Of a stretch of DNA of 64,000 nucleotides, positions 4,442 through 10,451 are shown piece after piece. How positions within the stretch are numbered: position 1 is the stretch's first letter; the number at the start of each line of letters is the position of its first letter. The stretch is from Alphaproteobacteria bacterium (GTDB lineage Bacteria > Pseudomonadota > Alphaproteobacteria > Sphingomonadales > Kordiimonadaceae). The stretch is from NCBI GenBank assembly GCA_006226495.1, contig SBGU01000016.1:62001-126000 (forward strand). Reading direction: 5' to 3'. The notes under the pieces were generated by a model that was not told the origin of the DNA, ran no database searches, and saw only the letters and a list, made by a program, of their open reading frames with translations. A program made the position numbers and the translations under genes.

Positions 4442-5842
4442 TCAGAAATGGATCGCGCGGCCGTAGGCGTCGAGCACGCTTTCGTGCATCATTTCGCTGA
4501 GCGTCGGGTGCGGGAACACCGTGTGCATCAGTTCGACTTCGGTGGTCTCCAGGGTCCGCGCGACCGCATAACCCTGGATCATCTCGGTCACTTCGGCGCC
4601 GATCATGTGGGCGCCCAGCAGTTCGCCGGTCTTTTTGTCGAACACGGTTTTCACGAAACCTTCGGCTTCACCCAGCGCCACGGCCTTGCCGTTGCCGATG
4701 AAGGGGAATTTGCCGACCCGGACCTCGTGCCCCTGCTCTTTCGCTTTGGCTTCAGTGAGGCCCACAGACGCCACCTGCGGGCGGCAATAGGTGCAGCCGG
4801 GGATGTTGCCCTTGTCCATGGGGTGCAGGCCCTTCAGCCCCGCGATCTTTTCAACCGCGATGATGCCTTCGTGGCTGGCCTTGTGCGCGAGCCACGGTGC
4901 GCCCGCCACGTCGCCGATGGCCCAGAAGCCGTCCACACCCGTGCGGCCCCATTTGTCGGTGACGATATGGCCGCGGTCGACCTTGATGCCCGCGGCTTCA
5001 AGCCCGAGGTTTTCGATGTTGCCGGTGATGCCGATGGCCAGGATCACACGGTCGACGGTGATTTCCTGTTTTTTGCCGTCCTGTTCCACCACGCAGGTGA
5101 CGGTCTCGGCGGCTTTCTTGAGTTCGGTCACCGAAGCCTTGGTCATGATCTTCATGCCCTGCTTCTTGAAGGCTTTTTCGGCGAAGGCCGACACGTCGGC
5201 ATCCTCGACCGGCAGCACCCGGTCCATCATCTCGACAACCGTGACGTCAGACCCCAGCTCGTTGAAGAAGCTCGCGAATTCGATGCCGATGGCGCCCGAG
5301 CCGATGACCAGAAGGCGCTTGGGCATGGTGTTGGGCGCCAGCGCATGTTTGTAGGTCCAGACCAGTTTGCCGTCCGCCTTCAGGTGCGGCAGTTCGCGCG
5401 CGCGGGCCCCGGTGGCGATGATGATATCCTTGGCGGTTACCTCGGTGGTTTTGCCGTCAGCGCCCTTCACCGAAACCTTGCCCTTGCCGGCCACCGTGGC
5501 TTCGCCCGCGATATGGTCGACCTTGTTTTTCTTGAACAGGCTTTTGATGCCGCCGTTCATCTGGGCCGCGATGCCGCGGCTGCGCTTGACGATGGCGTCC
5601 AGGTCAAATTCGACCTTGTCGATCTTCAGGCCATAATCCTTGGCATGTTTGGCAAGGTGGAACACTTCGGCCGAGCGCAAGAGCGCCTTCGTGGGGATGC
5701 AACCCCAATTGAGGCAGATGCCGCCCAGGTGTTCGCGTTCCACACACGCCACCTTCATGCCCAACTGGGCACCGCGGATTGCCGCCACATAACCGCCGGG
5801 GCCACCGCCCACAACAACCAGATCATACGCTTGAGACATCAT
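4442..5842 (-). CDS. lpdA: Dihydrolipoyl dehydrogenase (E3)
   Basis: 466 residues. E3 reoxidises dihydrolipoyl groups of the PDH complex, passing electrons through FAD to NAD. Visible are the FAD motif VVVGGGPGGYVAAI at the N terminus, the redox-active disulfide CLNWGCIPTKALL near residue 45, the NAD motif LLVIGSGAIGIEFASFFNE near residue 180, and the C-terminal catalytic HPTLSEMMHE. Start 5842 has AAAGGA upstream and overlaps the cupin stop by one base (TGATG), which implies translational coupling. It is the last gene of the pdh operon. Confidence 0.97.
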   Translation of the reverse strand: MMSQAYDLVVVGGGPGGYVAAIRGAQLGMKVACVEREHLGGICLNWGCIPTKALLRSAEVFHLAKHAKDYGLKIDKVEFDLDAIVKRSRGIAAQMNGGIKSLFKKNKVDHIAGEATVAGKGKVSVKGADGKTTEVTAKDIIIATGARARELPHLKADGKLVWTYKHALAPNTMPKRLLVIGSGAIGIEFASFFNELGSDVTVVEMMDRVLPVEDADVSAFAEKAFKKQGMKIMTKASVTELKKAAETVTCVVEQDGKKQEITVDRVILAIGITGNIENLGLEAAGIKVDRGHIVTDKWGRTGVDGFWAIGDVAGAPWLAHKASHEGIIAVEKIAGLKGLHPMDKGNIPGCTYCRPQVASVGLTEAKAKEQGHEVRVGKFPFIGNGKAVALGEAEGFVKTVFDKKTGELLGAHMIGAEVTEMIQGYAVARTLETTEVELMHTVFPHPTLSEMMHESVLDAYGRAIHF

Positions 5843-6201
5843 CAGATCCTTTCAGGACTTTCCTGGCGCCTTGGATCGGCCACGCCGCCCGTATGGTCGG
5901 TCGTCGCCCTTTCGATCAACAAAGCGCTGCATTCCTTGGGCGCATAGGGTTTGTGCTCGGTCCCTTTTGGCACAATCACCATCTCGCCAGTTTCCACCCA
6001 GACCTGCCGGTCCCGGTAATCCATGCGGAAACGCCCATCCAGCACAAGGAACAGCTCGTCCTCATCCGTATGGGCGTGCCAGACAAAATCGCCTTCGATT
6101 TTCGCCAGTTTGACATGGTGACCGTCCAGTTGCCCCACAAGCTTCGGCGACCACAGATCGCCGAAAAGCCCGAGTTTTTGCCGGAGGTTCACCACATCCA
6201 T
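5842..6201 (-). CDS. Small single-domain cupin
   Basis: 119-residue cupin-fold protein. The metal-site motif is present as HAHTDEDELFLVLDG with a following GEMVIVPKGTEHKP, giving the usual His/Glu ligands of the two conserved cupin motifs. Start ATG 6201 is preceded by GGGGGA at 7 nt; an in-frame GTG at 6207 is too close to that site. It sits between pdhC and lpdA and is coupled to lpdA by a one-base overlap. Single-domain cupins have many roles (small-molecule binding, isomerases, dioxygenases), so no substrate is assigned. Its position suggests expression with PDH. Confidence 0.85.
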   Translation of the reverse strand: MDVVNLRQKLGLFGDLWSPKLVGQLDGHHVKLAKIEGDFVWHAHTDEDELFLVLDGRFRMDYRDRQVWVETGEMVIVPKGTEHKPYAPKECSALLIERATTDHTGGVADPRRQESPERI

Positions 6202-6219
6202 GGCCACATCCCCCGCCCC

Positions 6220-7554
6220 TTAAAGGAGCATGGTGATCGGGTCTTCGATATAACCCTTGAAGGCGGCCAGGAACTCGGCACCCACGGCACCGTCGACCGC
6301 GCGGTGGTCACAGCTCAGGGTGCAGCTCATCACCGTGGCAACCGCCAGCGCGCCATCCTTCACCACCGGGCGCTGTTCACCGGCACCCACGGCCAGGATC
6401 GCGCCCTGCGGCGGGTTGATGACGGCGCCAAATTCCTTGATGCCATACATGCCAAGGTTCGAGATGGAGAAGGTGCCACCGGCATAATCTTCCGGCATCA
6501 GCTTGCCGTCGCGCGCGCGGGTGGCCAGGTCCTTCATGTCAGCCGAAATCTGACTCAGGCCCTTCTGGTCGGCGCCGCGGATCACCGGGGTCACCAGGCC
6601 GCCTTCGATGGCCACCGCCACCGAAATGTCGGCACGCTCGTACCAGTACATCTTGTCGCCGGCATATTGCACGTTCGCCGCCGGCACTTTTTTGAGCGCC
6701 AGCGCCGACGCGCGGATGATGAAATCATTGACCGACAGTTTGGTGCCACTGGACGCCAGCTTGGCATTCAGCTCGGACCGCTGGGCCAGAAGCTTGTCCA
6801 GTTCACAATCGATGGTCAGGTAGAAATGCGGCACATGCTGCTTCGATTCCGTCAGGCGCTTGGCGATGGTCTTGCGCATGTTCGAGAGGCGTTCCTCGCG
6901 GTACGGAATGTCGGCATGCGGGCCATAGCTCGGTGTTGTTGCAGCCGGGGCGGCAGGTGTTGCAGATGCAACAGTTTTGGGGGCGCTTTCGGCGGCTTTT
7001 GTTGCATCTGCAACAGCTTTGGGCGCATCGCCCTTGAGCGCGGCTTCCACGTCGCGTTTCACCACGCGGCCATTGGGGCCGGTGCCGGAAAGCGCAGCAA
7101 TATCAACACCTTCCTGGCCTGCAATACGGCGCGCGAGCGGCGAGGCCTTGACGCGGTCACCATCGTCCGGCTTTTGTGCTTTCGCCGGGGCCGGTGCGGG
7201 CGCCGGGGCTTTTTCAGCCGGTGCTTCAGCTTTCGGGGCCGGTGCGGCGGCTTCGGCTTTGGGCGCCGGGACCGCGGTTTCCTTCGGTGTTTCCACATCC
7301 GAAACGTCTTCGCCCTCTTCCGCCAGAAGTGCGATCAGCTTGCCGACCGGCACATCGTCCGTGCCTTCCGACACCAGGATCTTGGCAACCGTACCATCGT
7401 CGATACTTTCGACTTCCATGGTGGCCTTGTCGGTCTCGATCTCGGCGATCACATCACCGGAGACGACCTTATCCCCTTCTTTTACAAGCCATTTTGCCAA
7501 CGTGCCCTTCTCCATGGTGGGCGACAGGGCGGGCATGAAAATCTCAATAGCCAT
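6220..7554 (-). CDS. pdhC: Pyruvate dehydrogenase E2, dihydrolipoamide acetyltransferase
   Basis: 444 residues. E2 forms the PDH core and transfers acetyl groups from lipoamide to CoA. Domain order: one lipoyl domain (residues 1-80, lipoylated lysine in [12 protein letters not shown]), an Ala/Pro/Lys-rich linker, a peripheral-subunit binding domain (VKASPLARRIAGQEGVDIAA, about 135-170), a second Ala-rich linker, then the catalytic domain with the active-site motif DHRAVDGAVGAEFL near the C terminus. GAGGAA precedes ATG 7554. The linkers are the source of long spurious antisense ORFs. Confidence 0.97.
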   Translation of the reverse strand: MAIEIFMPALSPTMEKGTLAKWLVKEGDKVVSGDVIAEIETDKATMEVESIDDGTVAKILVSEGTDDVPVGKLIALLAEEGEDVSDVETPKETAVPAPKAEAAAPAPKAEAPAEKAPAPAPAPAKAQKPDDGDRVKASPLARRIAGQEGVDIAALSGTGPNGRVVKRDVEAALKGDAPKAVADATKAAESAPKTVASATPAAPAATTPSYGPHADIPYREERLSNMRKTIAKRLTESKQHVPHFYLTIDCELDKLLAQRSELNAKLASSGTKLSVNDFIIRASALALKKVPAANVQYAGDKMYWYERADISVAVAIEGGLVTPVIRGADQKGLSQISADMKDLATRARDGKLMPEDYAGGTFSISNLGMYGIKEFGAVINPPQGAILAVGAGEQRPVVKDGALAVATVMSCTLSCDHRAVDGAVGAEFLAAFKGYIEDPITMLL

Positions 7555-7613
7555 CTCTTGTTCCTCATCACAACCCGCCGTGCGGGTCCGTGCTCAATCA
7601 ACTTCAACGGTTC

Positions 7614-7820
7614 TCAGCGAAAGCCGAACATATTATGCCCATAGGCATAAAGCAGGATCGCCAGACCAATCAGCAGCACCAGGCCGAACAACCATTGTTC
7701 CGCCCCGTAAACGTTCCGGATCGACCCTTTCGGCAGCCCCTTGCTGCTCGAATTGATCCGCGGGGGCTTTTCGGCCCCCGTCTCCCGCCGCGCTAACCGC
7801 CTGATTTTCCTGAGCCTTAT
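7614..7820 (-). CDS. Small membrane protein B of the pdh operon, AUA start
   Basis: 68 codons read from an ATA at 7820 to TGA at 7614. No usual start codon occurs before residue 43, an in-frame TGA lies six codons upstream of the ATA, and AGGAG sits 7 nt before the ATA, overlapping the stop of protein A. The product has a basic N terminus (RLRKIRRLARR), a conserved PPRINS..., LPKG core, and one hydrophobic helix at residues 43-60 (WLFGLVLLIGLAILLYAY), predicting a tail-anchored inner-membrane protein. It aligns without gaps to protein A from the ATA codon onward, differing mostly by synonymous or conservative changes. Family not recognised. Confidence 0.72.
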   Translation of the reverse strand: MRLRKIRRLARRETGAEKPPRINSSSKGLPKGSIRNVYGAEQWLFGLVLLIGLAILLYAYGHNMFGFR

Positions 7821-7830
7821 GGCCGGTCTC

Positions 7831-8022
7831 CTATATCAGTCCCCAGGCATGCATTAAGGCTCCGAAACAAACCAGTAGTACCATCAGGAAGACCCAGCGT
7901 TCGAGTTGCCCCAAACCGCTGGCCGGTCCCTTTGGCAATTGCCTGATGGCAGAGTTTATCCGGGGTGGACTGTCGCCCATTGCCGGCCTGCGCATCAGGT
8001 GCCTGAGTTTGCGTAACCCTAT
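7831..8022 (-). CDS. Small membrane protein A of the pdh operon, AUA start
   Basis: 63 codons from ATA 8022 to TAG 7831, beginning 12 nt after the pdhB stop; GGAGG lies 6 nt before the ATA. The pdhB TAA is in frame just upstream, so no earlier start exists. An internal ATG at codon 10 is possible but would cut off LRKLRHL, which is conserved in paralogue B. Layout: basic N terminus, PPRINS (19-24), LPKG (29-32), one hydrophobic helix at 43-60 (WVFLMVLLVCFGALMHAW). 27 of 63 positions equal B. Lies between PDH E1-beta and E2, so a membrane role tied to PDH is conceivable but unproven. Confidence 0.74.
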   Translation of the reverse strand: MGLRKLRHLMRRPAMGDSPPRINSAIRQLPKGPASGLGQLERWVFLMVLLVCFGALMHAWGLI

Positions 8023-8034
8023 GGCCTGCCTCCG

Positions 8035-9405
8035 TTATTCCGCGTAACAGACGGCCTTGGCCGCCTTGACGATCTTGTCGGCATTCACAACCGCGGCTTT
8101 TTCGAGGTTGTTGGCATAGGGCAGCGGCACATCGACACTGTTCACACGCGTGACCGGTGCATCCAGCCAGTCGAACGCCTTTTCCATCAACTGGGCGGAA
8201 ACATCCGACGCCACCGAACATTGCGGCCAGCCTTCTTCGGCAACCACGCAGCGGTTGGTCTTTTTCACGCTTTCGATGATGGTATCGATGTCGAGCGGAC
8301 GGATTGTCCGGAGGTCGATCACCTCGGCGCTGATGCCCTCTTCCGCCAGCTTTTCCGCGGCTTTGAGCGCTTCACCCACTGTGATCGAATAGGATACGAT
8401 GGTCACGTCCGTGCCTTCGCGGTAGACACGCGCCTTGCCGATCGGCAGCACATAATCTTCCACATCCGGCACGTCGAAGCTTTCGCCGTACATCAGTTCG
8501 TTTTCAAGGAACACAACCGGGTTCGGGTCGCGGATCGCGGCCTTCAGCAGGCCCTTGCAGTCCGCGGCGTCATAGGGTGCGATCACCTTCAGGCCCGGCA
8601 CATGGGCGTACCATGCGGCATAGTTCTGGCTGTGCTGGGCGCCCACGCGGCTGGCGGCCCCGTTCGGGCCCCGGAATACGATCGGGCACTGCACCAGGCC
8701 ACCGGACATATAGCGCGTCTTGGCGGCCGAGTTGATGATATGGTCGATGGCCTGCATGGCGAAGTTGAAGGTCATGAATTCGATGACCGGCTTCAGCCCG
8801 GTGAAGGCAGCACCGGCACCAAGGCCGGCGAAACCATGTTCGGTGATCGGGGTATCGATCACACGCTCGGACCCGAATTCCTGCAACAGACCTTGCGTCA
8901 CCTTGTAGGCGCCCTGGTATTCCGCCACTTCTTCGCCCATGACGAACACATCGCCGTCCTTGCGCATTTCTTCGGCCATGGCGTCGCGCAGCGCTTCACG
9001 CACGGTCAGCGAAATCATTTCGGTACCGGCAGGAACGTCTGGGTCGGCAAGCGCCGGCGCGGCTTTTGCGGCCGGCGCGGCGGCCTTTTCAGGCGCGGGT
9101 GCCGGTGCGGGTGCAGCCTCGGCCTTCTGGGCCTTGGGCGCGGCCACATCCGCCGGGTCTTCGTCCTCTTCGGCCAGGATCGCGATCACTTCGCCAACCG
9201 GCACATCGTCCGTGCCTTCGGCGACCAGGATCTTGGCGATCACGCCTTCATCGACGGCTTCCACTTCCATGGTGGCCTTGTCGGTTTCGATTTCGGCAAT
9301 CACATCGCCGGATTCGACGGTGTCGCCTTCTTTTTTCAGCCATTTGGCCAGGGTGCCCTTTTCCATGGTCGGGGACAGGGCGGGCATGGTGATTTCAATA
9401 GCCAT
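8035..9405 (-). CDS. pdhB: Pyruvate dehydrogenase E1 beta with N-terminal lipoyl domain
   Basis: 456 residues from ATG 9405. With PdhA it forms the thiamin-diphosphate E1 that decarboxylates pyruvate. An extra lipoyl domain occupies residues 1-80 (lysine in [12 protein letters not shown]), followed by an Ala/Pro linker and the E1-beta domain ([61 protein letters not shown]). This lipoyl-E1-beta fusion is typical of alphaproteobacteria. A longer in-frame extension to 9468 overlaps pdhA and has no family similarity. GGGA overlaps the pdhA stop codon. Confidence 0.97.
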
Positions 9406-9419
9406 AGCGTGACAATCCC

Positions 9420-10451
9420 TTACGCCAGCACATCGGTATAAAGTTCGCTCAGGGCCGGTTCCGGACATTCGGTGGCGAAGGTCGCGGCGTCGGCAACGAT
9501 GGACTTGAGCTCCTTGTCCATGTCCTTGAGGCCGGCTTCATCCATGATTTTCTTGTCCAGAATCAGTTGCTTGAGCTGATCGATACAGTCGCGCTCGGCG
9601 CGCATCTTCTGCACTTCTTCCTTCGAGCGGTATTTCGCCGGGTCGGACATGGAGTGGCCGCGATACCGGTAGGTCTTCATCTCAAGCACAAACGGGCCTT
9701 CGCCGGCACGGCAGTGGGCCACAGCTTCGTCCATCGCGGCGCGCACGGCCAGCACATTCATGCCGTCGACCTGCTTGCCTGGGATGCGGAAGCTTTCGCC
9801 GCGGCGGAACAGTTCGACTTCCGAGCTCGAGCGCGTGACGGACGTGCCCATGGCATACTGGTTGTTCTCGATGATATAGATCACCGGCAGGTTCCAGATG
9901 CGCGCCATGTTGAAGCTTTCGTAAACCTGGCCCTGGTTGGCGGCACCGTCACCAAAATAGGCGACCGAGATATTGTCGGTCTTGCGGTATTTGGCTGCGA
10001 ACGCGAGGCCGGTGCCCAGCGATACCTGCGCGCCCACGATACCATGACCGCCATAAAAACCGCGCTCGGGGTCGAACATATGCATCGAACCGCCCTTGCC
10101 GCGCGAGCAACCGCCTTCGCGGCCGGTCAGTTCGGCCATGACACCACGCGGGTCGGAGCCGGCGGCGATCATATGACCGTGTTCACGGTAACCGGTGATG
10201 ACGGAATCGCCTTTTTTCAGCGCGCTCTGCACACCAACGGCAACGGCTTCCTGGCCGATATACAGGTGGCAGAAACCACCGATCAGGCCCATGCCATACA
10301 TCTGGCCGGCTTTTTCTTCGAAGCGGCGCACCAGCAGCATTTGGCGATAGAATTCAACAAGTTCGTCATTGGACGCTTCATAGAGCGCCGGCTTGGCGGT
10401 GCGGCGGCGGGTCGGCGTTGCCGTCTTTTTAGTCGGTTTTGCAGTAGTCAT
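9420..10451 (-). CDS. pdhA: Pyruvate dehydrogenase E1 alpha
   Basis: 343 residues; catalytic alpha subunit of E1. The thiamin-diphosphate motif [17 protein letters not shown] with following [17 protein letters not shown] is near residue 165, the regulatory-type loop [20 protein letters not shown] near 265. The N-terminal 20 residues are Lys/Arg/Thr-rich and precede the conserved [20 protein letters not shown], a usual arrangement in alphaproteobacterial PdhA. First gene of the pdh operon, preceded by an AT-rich region with a promoter-like -10 and an inverted repeat. Confidence 0.97.

What the first reader, a model, noticed from the sequence alone, without database searches (positions are those of the whole stretch)
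7614..8022. Two tandem small membrane proteins with AUA start codons inside the PDH operon
Seen: between pdhB and pdhC two frames of 63 and 68 codons each begin with ATA placed 6-7 nt after a strong Shine-Dalgarno (GGAGG and AGGAG). No ATG, GTG or TTG exists at that position; in-frame stops lie just upstream. Starting at the ATA, the two products align without gaps and share 27 of 63 residues (LRK, PPRINS, LPKG, a C-terminal membrane helix), while the DNA differs largely at synonymous sites, which indicates selection on the protein. Two independent ATG-to-ATA sequencing errors at matching sites are unlikely. Known: AUA is a very poor initiator, and gene finders limited to ATG/GTG/TTG would miss both genes. 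Inference: low, IF3-sensitive or stop-codon-coupled expression of a single-span protein pair made with PDH, possibly tethering the complex to the membrane or regulating it.
Basis: partly seen in the sequence, partly recalled or inferred. Interest (0 to 1): 0.85.

Follow-up and report, generated by a model that had tools for sequence, protein, structure and literature searches.

The report
AUN-start small proteins in PDH operon
Inside the pyruvate dehydrogenase operon of Kordiimonas-like bacteria sit tiny genes, probably for single-span membrane proteins, whose apparent start codon is AUA, AUU, AUC or AUG, a gene type that usual start-codon rules could overlook.

Summary
Between pdhB and pdhC (minus strand) lie two tandem paralogous frames, 63 and 68 codons, each starting at ATA 6-7 nt after a strong Shine-Dalgarno. 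Alone, such a frame is not rare; relatives make the case. At the same junction, 7 of 29 family genomes carry homologues: 8 intact genes in 6 genomes plus one interrupted copy. The intact start codons are ATA 2, ATT 2, ATC 2, ATG 2, never GTG or TTG. At codon 1 the first two bases are invariant and the third is evenly split, while the residues just upstream are not conserved. Codon-position differences fit coding selection. In the same family infC (IF3) has ATA at its apparent start in 28 of 28 loci. Each product has a basic N-terminus and one predicted C-terminal membrane helix and reaches no family cut-off in the libraries tried. Best reading: real, weakly initiated, probably IF3-sensitive and termination-coupled genes for bitopic membrane proteins made in small amounts with PDH. 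Anchoring or regulating PDH is inference. Nothing here shows expression.

The parts
7831..8022 (-). ORF1, 63 aa, start ATA at 8022, basic N-terminus plus C-terminal membrane helix (predicted)
7614..7820 (-). ORF2, 68 aa, start ATA at 7820, paralogue of ORF1
   Evidence: AlphaFold helices 2-13 and 34-66
8029..8033 (-). Shine-Dalgarno GGAGG of ORF1, 6 nt spacer
   Evidence: sequence
7828..7832 (-). Shine-Dalgarno AGGAG of ORF2, 7 nt spacer, overlaps the ORF1 stop UAG
   Evidence: sequence
7834..7890 (-). predicted membrane segment of ORF1 (residues 45-63)
   Evidence: hydropathy window of 19
7638..7694 (-). predicted membrane segment of ORF2 (residues 43-61)
   Evidence: hydropathy; helix; mean pLDDT 93 and 92 for residues 41-50 and 51-60
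8035..9405 (-). pdhB, PDH E1 beta with N-terminal lipoyl domain; its stop TAA is 12 nt before the ORF1 start and in frame with it
6220..7554 (-). pdhC, PDH E2 acyltransferase
9420..10451 (-). pdhA, PDH E1 alpha, upstream in the operon
   Evidence: translation; name recalled from sequence features, not searched

Best explanation
These are two real small genes, duplicated in tandem, that encode bitopic membrane proteins: an arginine-rich cytoplasmic N-terminus of about 12 residues, a flexible linker and one C-terminal membrane helix. Translation starts at the AUA codons, read by initiator tRNA, driven by a strong Shine-Dalgarno sequence and by ribosomes that have just terminated on pdhB (12 nt upstream) or on ORF1 (10 nt upstream; the SD overlaps its stop). 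In the family the start is AUN with a free third base. The yield is therefore probably a small fraction of that of the PDH subunits and should fall when IF3 is high, as expected for infC, which has AUA at its apparent start in the same clade. Shown by sequence: the frames, SDs, homology, coding signal and the AUN pattern. Predicted: the helices and topology. Inferred: actual initiation at AUA, IF3 sensitivity, coupling. Most likely role, inferred only: a few copies dock the large, acidic PDH complex (lipoyl regions of E1 beta and E2, residues 1-88, have net charge -17 and -14) at the inner membrane or modulate it there. I give the AUN-start gene reading about 0.8 and the docking role about 0.25.
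For: Homologues at the same junction in 7 of 29 family genomes. Start codons of the 8 intact genes: ATA 2, ATT 2, ATC 2, ATG 2; bases 1-2 invariant, third base 2/2/2/2; residues just upstream unconserved; R4, R7, R12 invariant. All 6 AUH genes have a GGAG-type SD 6-8 nt upstream. If starts had simply been lost, all 6 changes falling on the third base has a naive chance of (1/3)^6 = 0.0014, or 0.004 if the G000 pair counts once. Differences over 21 gene pairs of 7 genes are highest at codon position 3 and lowest at position 2 (0.57, 0.41, 0.70; pairs other than G000-G000 were aligned as proteins, which favours the frame). Leave-one-out profile scores of the 7 core genes are 29-64 bits against at most 9 for 200 shuffles each. 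infC has ATA at its apparent start in 28 of 28 loci. All 8 products have a hydrophobic segment with a basic N-side (net +6 to +14). Precedent: AUA and AUU starts in S. aureus give about 10% of AUG output in poor medium, up to 30% for ccpN in rich medium (PMC13009471, section 10 read).
Against: No expression data. Patchy: 22 of 29 family genomes lack a detectable copy, and the G023 copy has an internal stop. The two G000 proteins score only 7.0 and 8.1 bits with a profile built without them (shuffles up to 5.9 and 4.1). G026 was missed by the profile search and recognised by place and N-terminus (10.6 bits, shuffles up to 5.7). Synonymous sites are saturated in most pairs, so formal dN/dS is unreliable. 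Two of 8 genes use ATG, so a weak start is not required. Canonical codons occur elsewhere in several frames: codon 10 is ATG in ORF1 and TTG in the first G014 gene. The E. coli finding that IF3 inhibits re-initiation was explained by its authors through lack of an SD (PMC2268962, passages), which may not carry over to these strong-SD sites. No unusual fold at 7 of the 8 starts. The charge argument for docking is generic.
Confidence: 0.72

Rival explanations
1. Decaying pseudogenes: the genes lost their ATG by mutation and the open frames are remnants not yet broken.
For: G023 copy interrupted by a stop, possible remnants in G003 and G025, 22 of 29 genomes without the gene.
Against: All 6 non-ATG starts keep AT at bases 1-2 and all keep a GGAG-type SD; frames are intact and the G000 paralogues show a coding signal; three genomes besides G000 (G014, G007, G026) show the same pattern.
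Confidence: 0.12
2. Stop-codon readthrough of pdhB: the first frame is a C-terminal membrane-anchoring extension of E1 beta rather than a separate protein.
For: In 6 of 7 genomes the first gene is in frame with the pdhB stop (9-18 nt gap; naive binomial 0.007, not corrected for shared ancestry).
Against: G026 is out of frame, G007 has two stops in a row, ORF2 of G000 is out of frame with ORF1, and ORF2 of G014 lies beyond further stops; the SD and the AUN at the aligned start are unexplained.
Confidence: 0.06
3. Initiation at other canonical codons: an internal ATG, GTG or TTG, or in G014 ORF2 and G026 an upstream TTG, giving shortened or extended proteins.
For: Codon 10 is ATG in G000 ORF1 and TTG in the first G014 gene (2 of 8 genes); upstream in-frame TTGs exist in G014 ORF2 and G026.
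Against: Codon 10 is not canonical in the other 6 genes. A start at codon 10 would drop the invariant R4 and R7. ORF2 of G000 has no canonical codon before 44. The GGAG-type SD sits 6-8 nt before the AUH codon in all 6 AUH genes; SD strength at the rival codons was not computed.
Confidence: 0.08

Closest known systems
infC (IF3) with AUU, AUC or AUA start and IF3 autoregulation
   Same: Start differs from AUG only at the third base, with an SD; ATT in E. coli and ATC in Streptomyces (PMC5472188, passages), AUA in S. aureus (PMC13009471, section 10); in the family studied here ATA at the apparent start in 28 of 28 loci.
   Different: infC is a translation factor with a fixed ATA here; the pdh genes vary among ATA, ATT, ATC and ATG.
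cvfC1 (AUU) and ccpN (AUA) of Staphylococcus aureus
   Same: cvfC1 is a 61-aa small protein; both have a conserved non-canonical AUH start with a strong SD, mapped by Ribo-Ret, with output about 10% of AUG in poor medium (PMC13009471, section 10 read).
   Different: Unrelated proteins; cvfC1 is first in its operon (the context of ccpN was not seen). [quoted passage not shown] here 2 of 8 genes have ATG.
sigR of Streptomyces (GTC start)
   Same: A non-canonical start repressed by IF3 sets the balance between partner proteins encoded side by side (PMC5472188, passages read).
   Different: Sigma factor, GTC, unrelated protein.
pcnB of E. coli (AUU start)
   Same: AUU start limits expression (seen only as a reference title in PMC13009471).
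   Different: Unrelated enzyme (recalled), not in a PDH operon (recalled).

Membership tests
Genes with IF3-discriminated non-canonical starts (infC, pcnB, ccpN, sigR kind) | Start codon other than AUG, GUG, UUG supported by comparison | tested here: met
   6 of 8 intact genes have AUH at the aligned start
Genes with IF3-discriminated non-canonical starts (infC, pcnB, ccpN, sigR kind) | Non-canonical start kept among relatives | tested here: inconclusive
   AUN kept, but 2 of 8 intact genes have ATG
Genes with IF3-discriminated non-canonical starts (infC, pcnB, ccpN, sigR kind) | Strong SD at proper spacing | tested here: met
   GGAG-type in 6 of 6 AUH genes, 6-8 nt
Genes with IF3-discriminated non-canonical starts (infC, pcnB, ccpN, sigR kind) | Initiation and IF3 repression measured | not testable with these tools
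   needs profiling and reporters
Any catalogued protein family | Match above curated cut-off or at a significant E-value | tested here: not met
   Pfam and NCBIfam: 7 of 8 proteins scanned (G026 not), none reaches a cut-off; PHROGs: 8 of 8, best E 0.081; PDB sequences with the profile of 8: none up to E 1; PADLOC not scanned
PDH membrane anchor | Single-span membrane protein encoded among the PDH genes | tested here: met
   (membrane helix predicted, not measured)
PDH membrane anchor | Binds PDH and moves it to the membrane | not testable with these tools
   needs fractionation and pull-down

The most novel reading that the evidence does not exclude
In this bacterial family the third base of the start codon is unconstrained for a whole gene family, because ribosomes terminating on the gene just upstream re-initiate at any AUN behind a strong SD. 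The proteins are sub-stoichiometric anchors that dock the PDH complex at the membrane, and many more AUN-started small genes hide in operon gaps of Alphaproteobacteria.
Probability: 0.18. Interest if true: 0.82.

Novelty: new variant of a known kind. Interest (0 to 1): 0.6.

Why it matters
Very few non-canonical starts have been characterised by experiment (as PMC5472188 puts it, passages read). Here one gene family shows all four AUN codons at one aligned start in close relatives, a natural series for testing how IF3, the SD and termination coupling set start-codon strictness. It also points to an uncatalogued family of small, probably membrane-bound proteins inside a central metabolic operon that start-codon rules can hide from annotation.

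Tried and rejected
Viral-contig search with ORF2: 114 pattern matches, no relative. Search of 59 relatives with ORF2 alone: beyond the own pair only the G014 hit held. Of its weak rows, looked at six besides G014 (L003, L006, L007, L025, L027, L029), but read the five minus-strand ones on the wrong strand; one search read these five and L008 on the right strand and found frames without the family's features. The remaining weak rows were not read. Order-wide profile search of 296 genomes, family included: hits with E below 0.001 only in 6 family genomes. 30 of the 33 weaker rows (E 0.001-0.05) lie in frames over 120 aa or with internal stops; none was inspected. Class-wide search of 385 genomes: three hits at E 7e-4 to 8e-4 outside the own genome. 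The one inspected (L230, ATC codon, upstream of a frame that looks like rho) has no SD and no evident membrane segment; the other two were not inspected (their rows show a 445-aa frame and a frame with two stops). G042 (another family, ATG start, similar design) scores 1.2 bits, below shuffles (5.9), and is not counted as a homologue. Folding of single start regions: 7 of 8 starts (G026 not folded), z-scores -1.24 to 0.85; no consensus fold was attempted. The link between AUH starts and GGAG-type SD (6 of 6 against 1 of 3 ATG genes, the interrupted copy included) is not significant (Fisher 0.083). Start regions of G003 and G025 look like remnants with ATT and ATA, but too little is left to count. 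The pdhB tree has rough supports (bootstrap not settled), so the number of independent start changes was not estimated. Paper searches: eight, open-licence PMC only, the listings capped (15 of 76, 9 of 9, 15 of 186, 1 of 1, 6 of 6, 10 of 11, 0 and 0 papers shown). None of the papers shown is, by title and abstract start, about this protein family, Kordiimonas start codons or an AUA infC in Alphaproteobacteria; I claim nothing about print beyond that.

Full report
What is there. On the minus strand, between pdhB (E1 beta, 8035-9405) and pdhC (E2, 6220-7554), lie two open frames: ORF1 8022..7831 (63 aa) and ORF2 7820..7614 (68 aa). Each begins with ATA; the SDs are GGAGG with a 6 nt spacer and AGGAG with a 7 nt spacer, and the second SD overlaps the stop codon of ORF1. 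ORF1 also has in-frame ATGs at codons 10 and 15. ORF2 has no canonical start codon before codon 44 (read).

More than chance? Not by itself. In the window, 58 places in about 7.9 kb outside crudely called genes have an SD-like word, a suitable spacer and 50 or more open codons, and 4 of these carry an AUH codon, two of them in one frame. That scan lists ORF1 but not ORF2, because its longest-frame-first gene calls include an opposite-strand frame at 5779-7644 that overlaps 31 of the 207 bases of ORF2. The two frames are however paralogous: 27 of 63 residues identical without gaps against 12-18 in the other five frames, and against a null of mean 16.5, maximum 26 in 5000. In the own genome a search with ORF2 gives itself (E 9.8e-42), ORF1 (4.5e-11) and two chance-level rows (0.27 and 9.8).

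Relatives. I read the pdhB-pdhC junction of all 29 genomes that the family search holds (19 of the genus; 10 of other genera). Homologues sit there in 7 of 29: G000 (two), G014 (two), G007, G006, G011, G026 (one each), and G023 (one, with an internal TGA). The profile search finds 6 of these 7. G026 was recognised by place and N-terminus; it scores 10.6 bits against at most 5.7 for 200 shuffles. 18 of 29 junctions are 119 nt or shorter, and 4 of 29 (G002, G004, G020, G024) hold other open frames that read, by eye, as membrane proteins. In a sample of 296 genomes of the order, hits with E below 0.001 lie only in the family; among 385 genomes of the class, three hits at 7e-4 to 8e-4 lie outside it, of which one was inspected and rejected and two were not inspected.

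Start codons. The 8 intact genes start, at the aligned first residue, with ATA (G000 both), ATT (G014 first, G026), ATC (G014 second, G007) and ATG (G006, G011). Bases 1 and 2 are invariant; base 3 is 2/2/2/2. The residues just upstream are not conserved, and R4, R7 and R12 are invariant just downstream. No GTG or TTG occurs at this place. All six AUH genes have a GGAG-type SD 6-8 nt upstream; of the ATG genes G011 has one, G006 and the interrupted G023 copy do not (Fisher 0.083). Were these lost starts, substitutions would be expected at all three positions; all six falling on the third has a naive chance of 0.0014 (0.004 with the G000 pair counted once). Since the pattern recurs in four separate assemblies (G000, G014, G007, G026), shared sequencing error is unlikely.

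Coding signal. Over 21 pairs of 7 genes the mean fraction of differing sites is 0.57, 0.41 and 0.70 at codon positions 1, 2 and 3; all pairs but the G000 pair needed a protein-guided alignment, which favours this frame. Formal dS is saturated in most pairs, so I quote no dN/dS as evidence. Leave-one-out profile scores of the 7 genes are 29-64 bits, shuffles at most 9; with both G000 genes left out they score 7.0 and 8.1 bits against 5.9 and 4.1 for shuffles, which is above chance but weak.

A comparison gene in the same clade. infC, the gene of IF3, carries ATA at its apparent start behind a GGAG in 28 of 28 loci (28 of 29 family genomes gave a hit; two rows written '?' also show ATA, and the two loci that one search failed to parse show ATA). 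That this ATA is the start is my reading of the alignment and the SD. In 3 of 28 (G000, G011, G023) an in-frame ATG lies two codons upstream, very close to the SD, and in 3 others (G026, G028, G021) an in-frame ATG lies five codons downstream, far from it. AUA initiation is thus probably in use in these cells, on the gene known elsewhere to be autoregulated through such a codon (PMC5472188, passages; PMC13009471, passages and section 10).

The proteins. All eight intact products have a basic N-side (net +6 to +14) and one strongly hydrophobic stretch towards the C-terminal end. AlphaFold on ORF2 with five relatives gives helices 2-13 and 34-66, mean pLDDT 69.9, pTM 0.34; block means exceed 90 only for residues 41-60. 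No family reaches a cut-off in Pfam or NCBIfam for the 7 of 8 proteins scanned, and nothing significant came from PHROGs (8 of 8) or PDB sequences (profile of 8).

How it most likely works. A ribosome finishing pdhB meets, within 9-18 nt in all seven first genes, a new start; in six of the seven first genes and both second genes the distance to that start holds an SD of some strength, strongest in the AUH genes. Initiator tRNA pairs with AUN. Output should be a fraction of that of an AUG start (about 10% for AUA and AUU in S. aureus in poor medium, up to 30% for ccpN in rich medium) and should fall with more IF3. Overproduced IF3 also inhibits coupled re-initiation in E. coli, but the authors' favoured explanation there rests on the lack of an SD (PMC2268962, passages), so this may not carry over. 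Since two genes use AUG, the data do not show selection for a weak start; a free third base fits better. For function I commit, at about 0.25, to sub-stoichiometric membrane docking or modulation of the PDH complex: the operon position, the predicted helix, the basic N-terminus and the acidic lipoyl regions (-17 and -14) fit, but nothing tests it. The patchy distribution says the protein is dispensable.

Against this reading. Expression is unmeasured; one copy is interrupted; the gene is undetected in 22 of 29 relatives; codon 10 is a canonical start codon in 2 of 8 genes; in 6 of 7 genomes the first gene is in frame with the pdhB stop, which a readthrough model would predict, although G026 (out of frame) and G007 (double stop) contradict readthrough.

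Novelty. Non-canonical AUH starts are known (infC, pcnB, ccpN, cvfC1). New here, so far as the eight paper searches and the family libraries listed show, are the gene family itself, its place in the PDH operon, and the interchange of all four AUN codons at one start.

Noticed in passing
L221-L228, L233-L252 (infC loci): infC has ATA at its apparent start behind GGAG in 28 of 28 Kordiimonadaceae loci; 3 also have an in-frame ATG two codons upstream and 3 others one five codons downstream.
   Followed up: yes
pdhB-pdhC junction in L037, L042, L109, L117 (family) and L124, L218 (another family): The same junction holds other open frames reading as membrane proteins of roughly 150-190 aa (stop to stop); G020 has two, and some look related to each other across genera (by eye).
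   Followed up: partly
window 8022-8037 and the other junctions: The first small gene is in frame with the pdhB stop in 6 of 7 genomes (gaps 9, 12, 12, 15, 15, 18 nt; G026 10 nt, out of frame).
   Followed up: partly
L044 (G003) and L112 (G025) junctions: Short sequences resembling decayed copies, beginning SD-like word plus ATT AGA CGT and GGAG plus ATA respectively.
   Followed up: no
window 5842-6207, minus strand: A Cupin_2 domain gene (GTG start) lies between pdhC and the dihydrolipoamide-dehydrogenase-like gene at 4442-5842.
   Followed up: no
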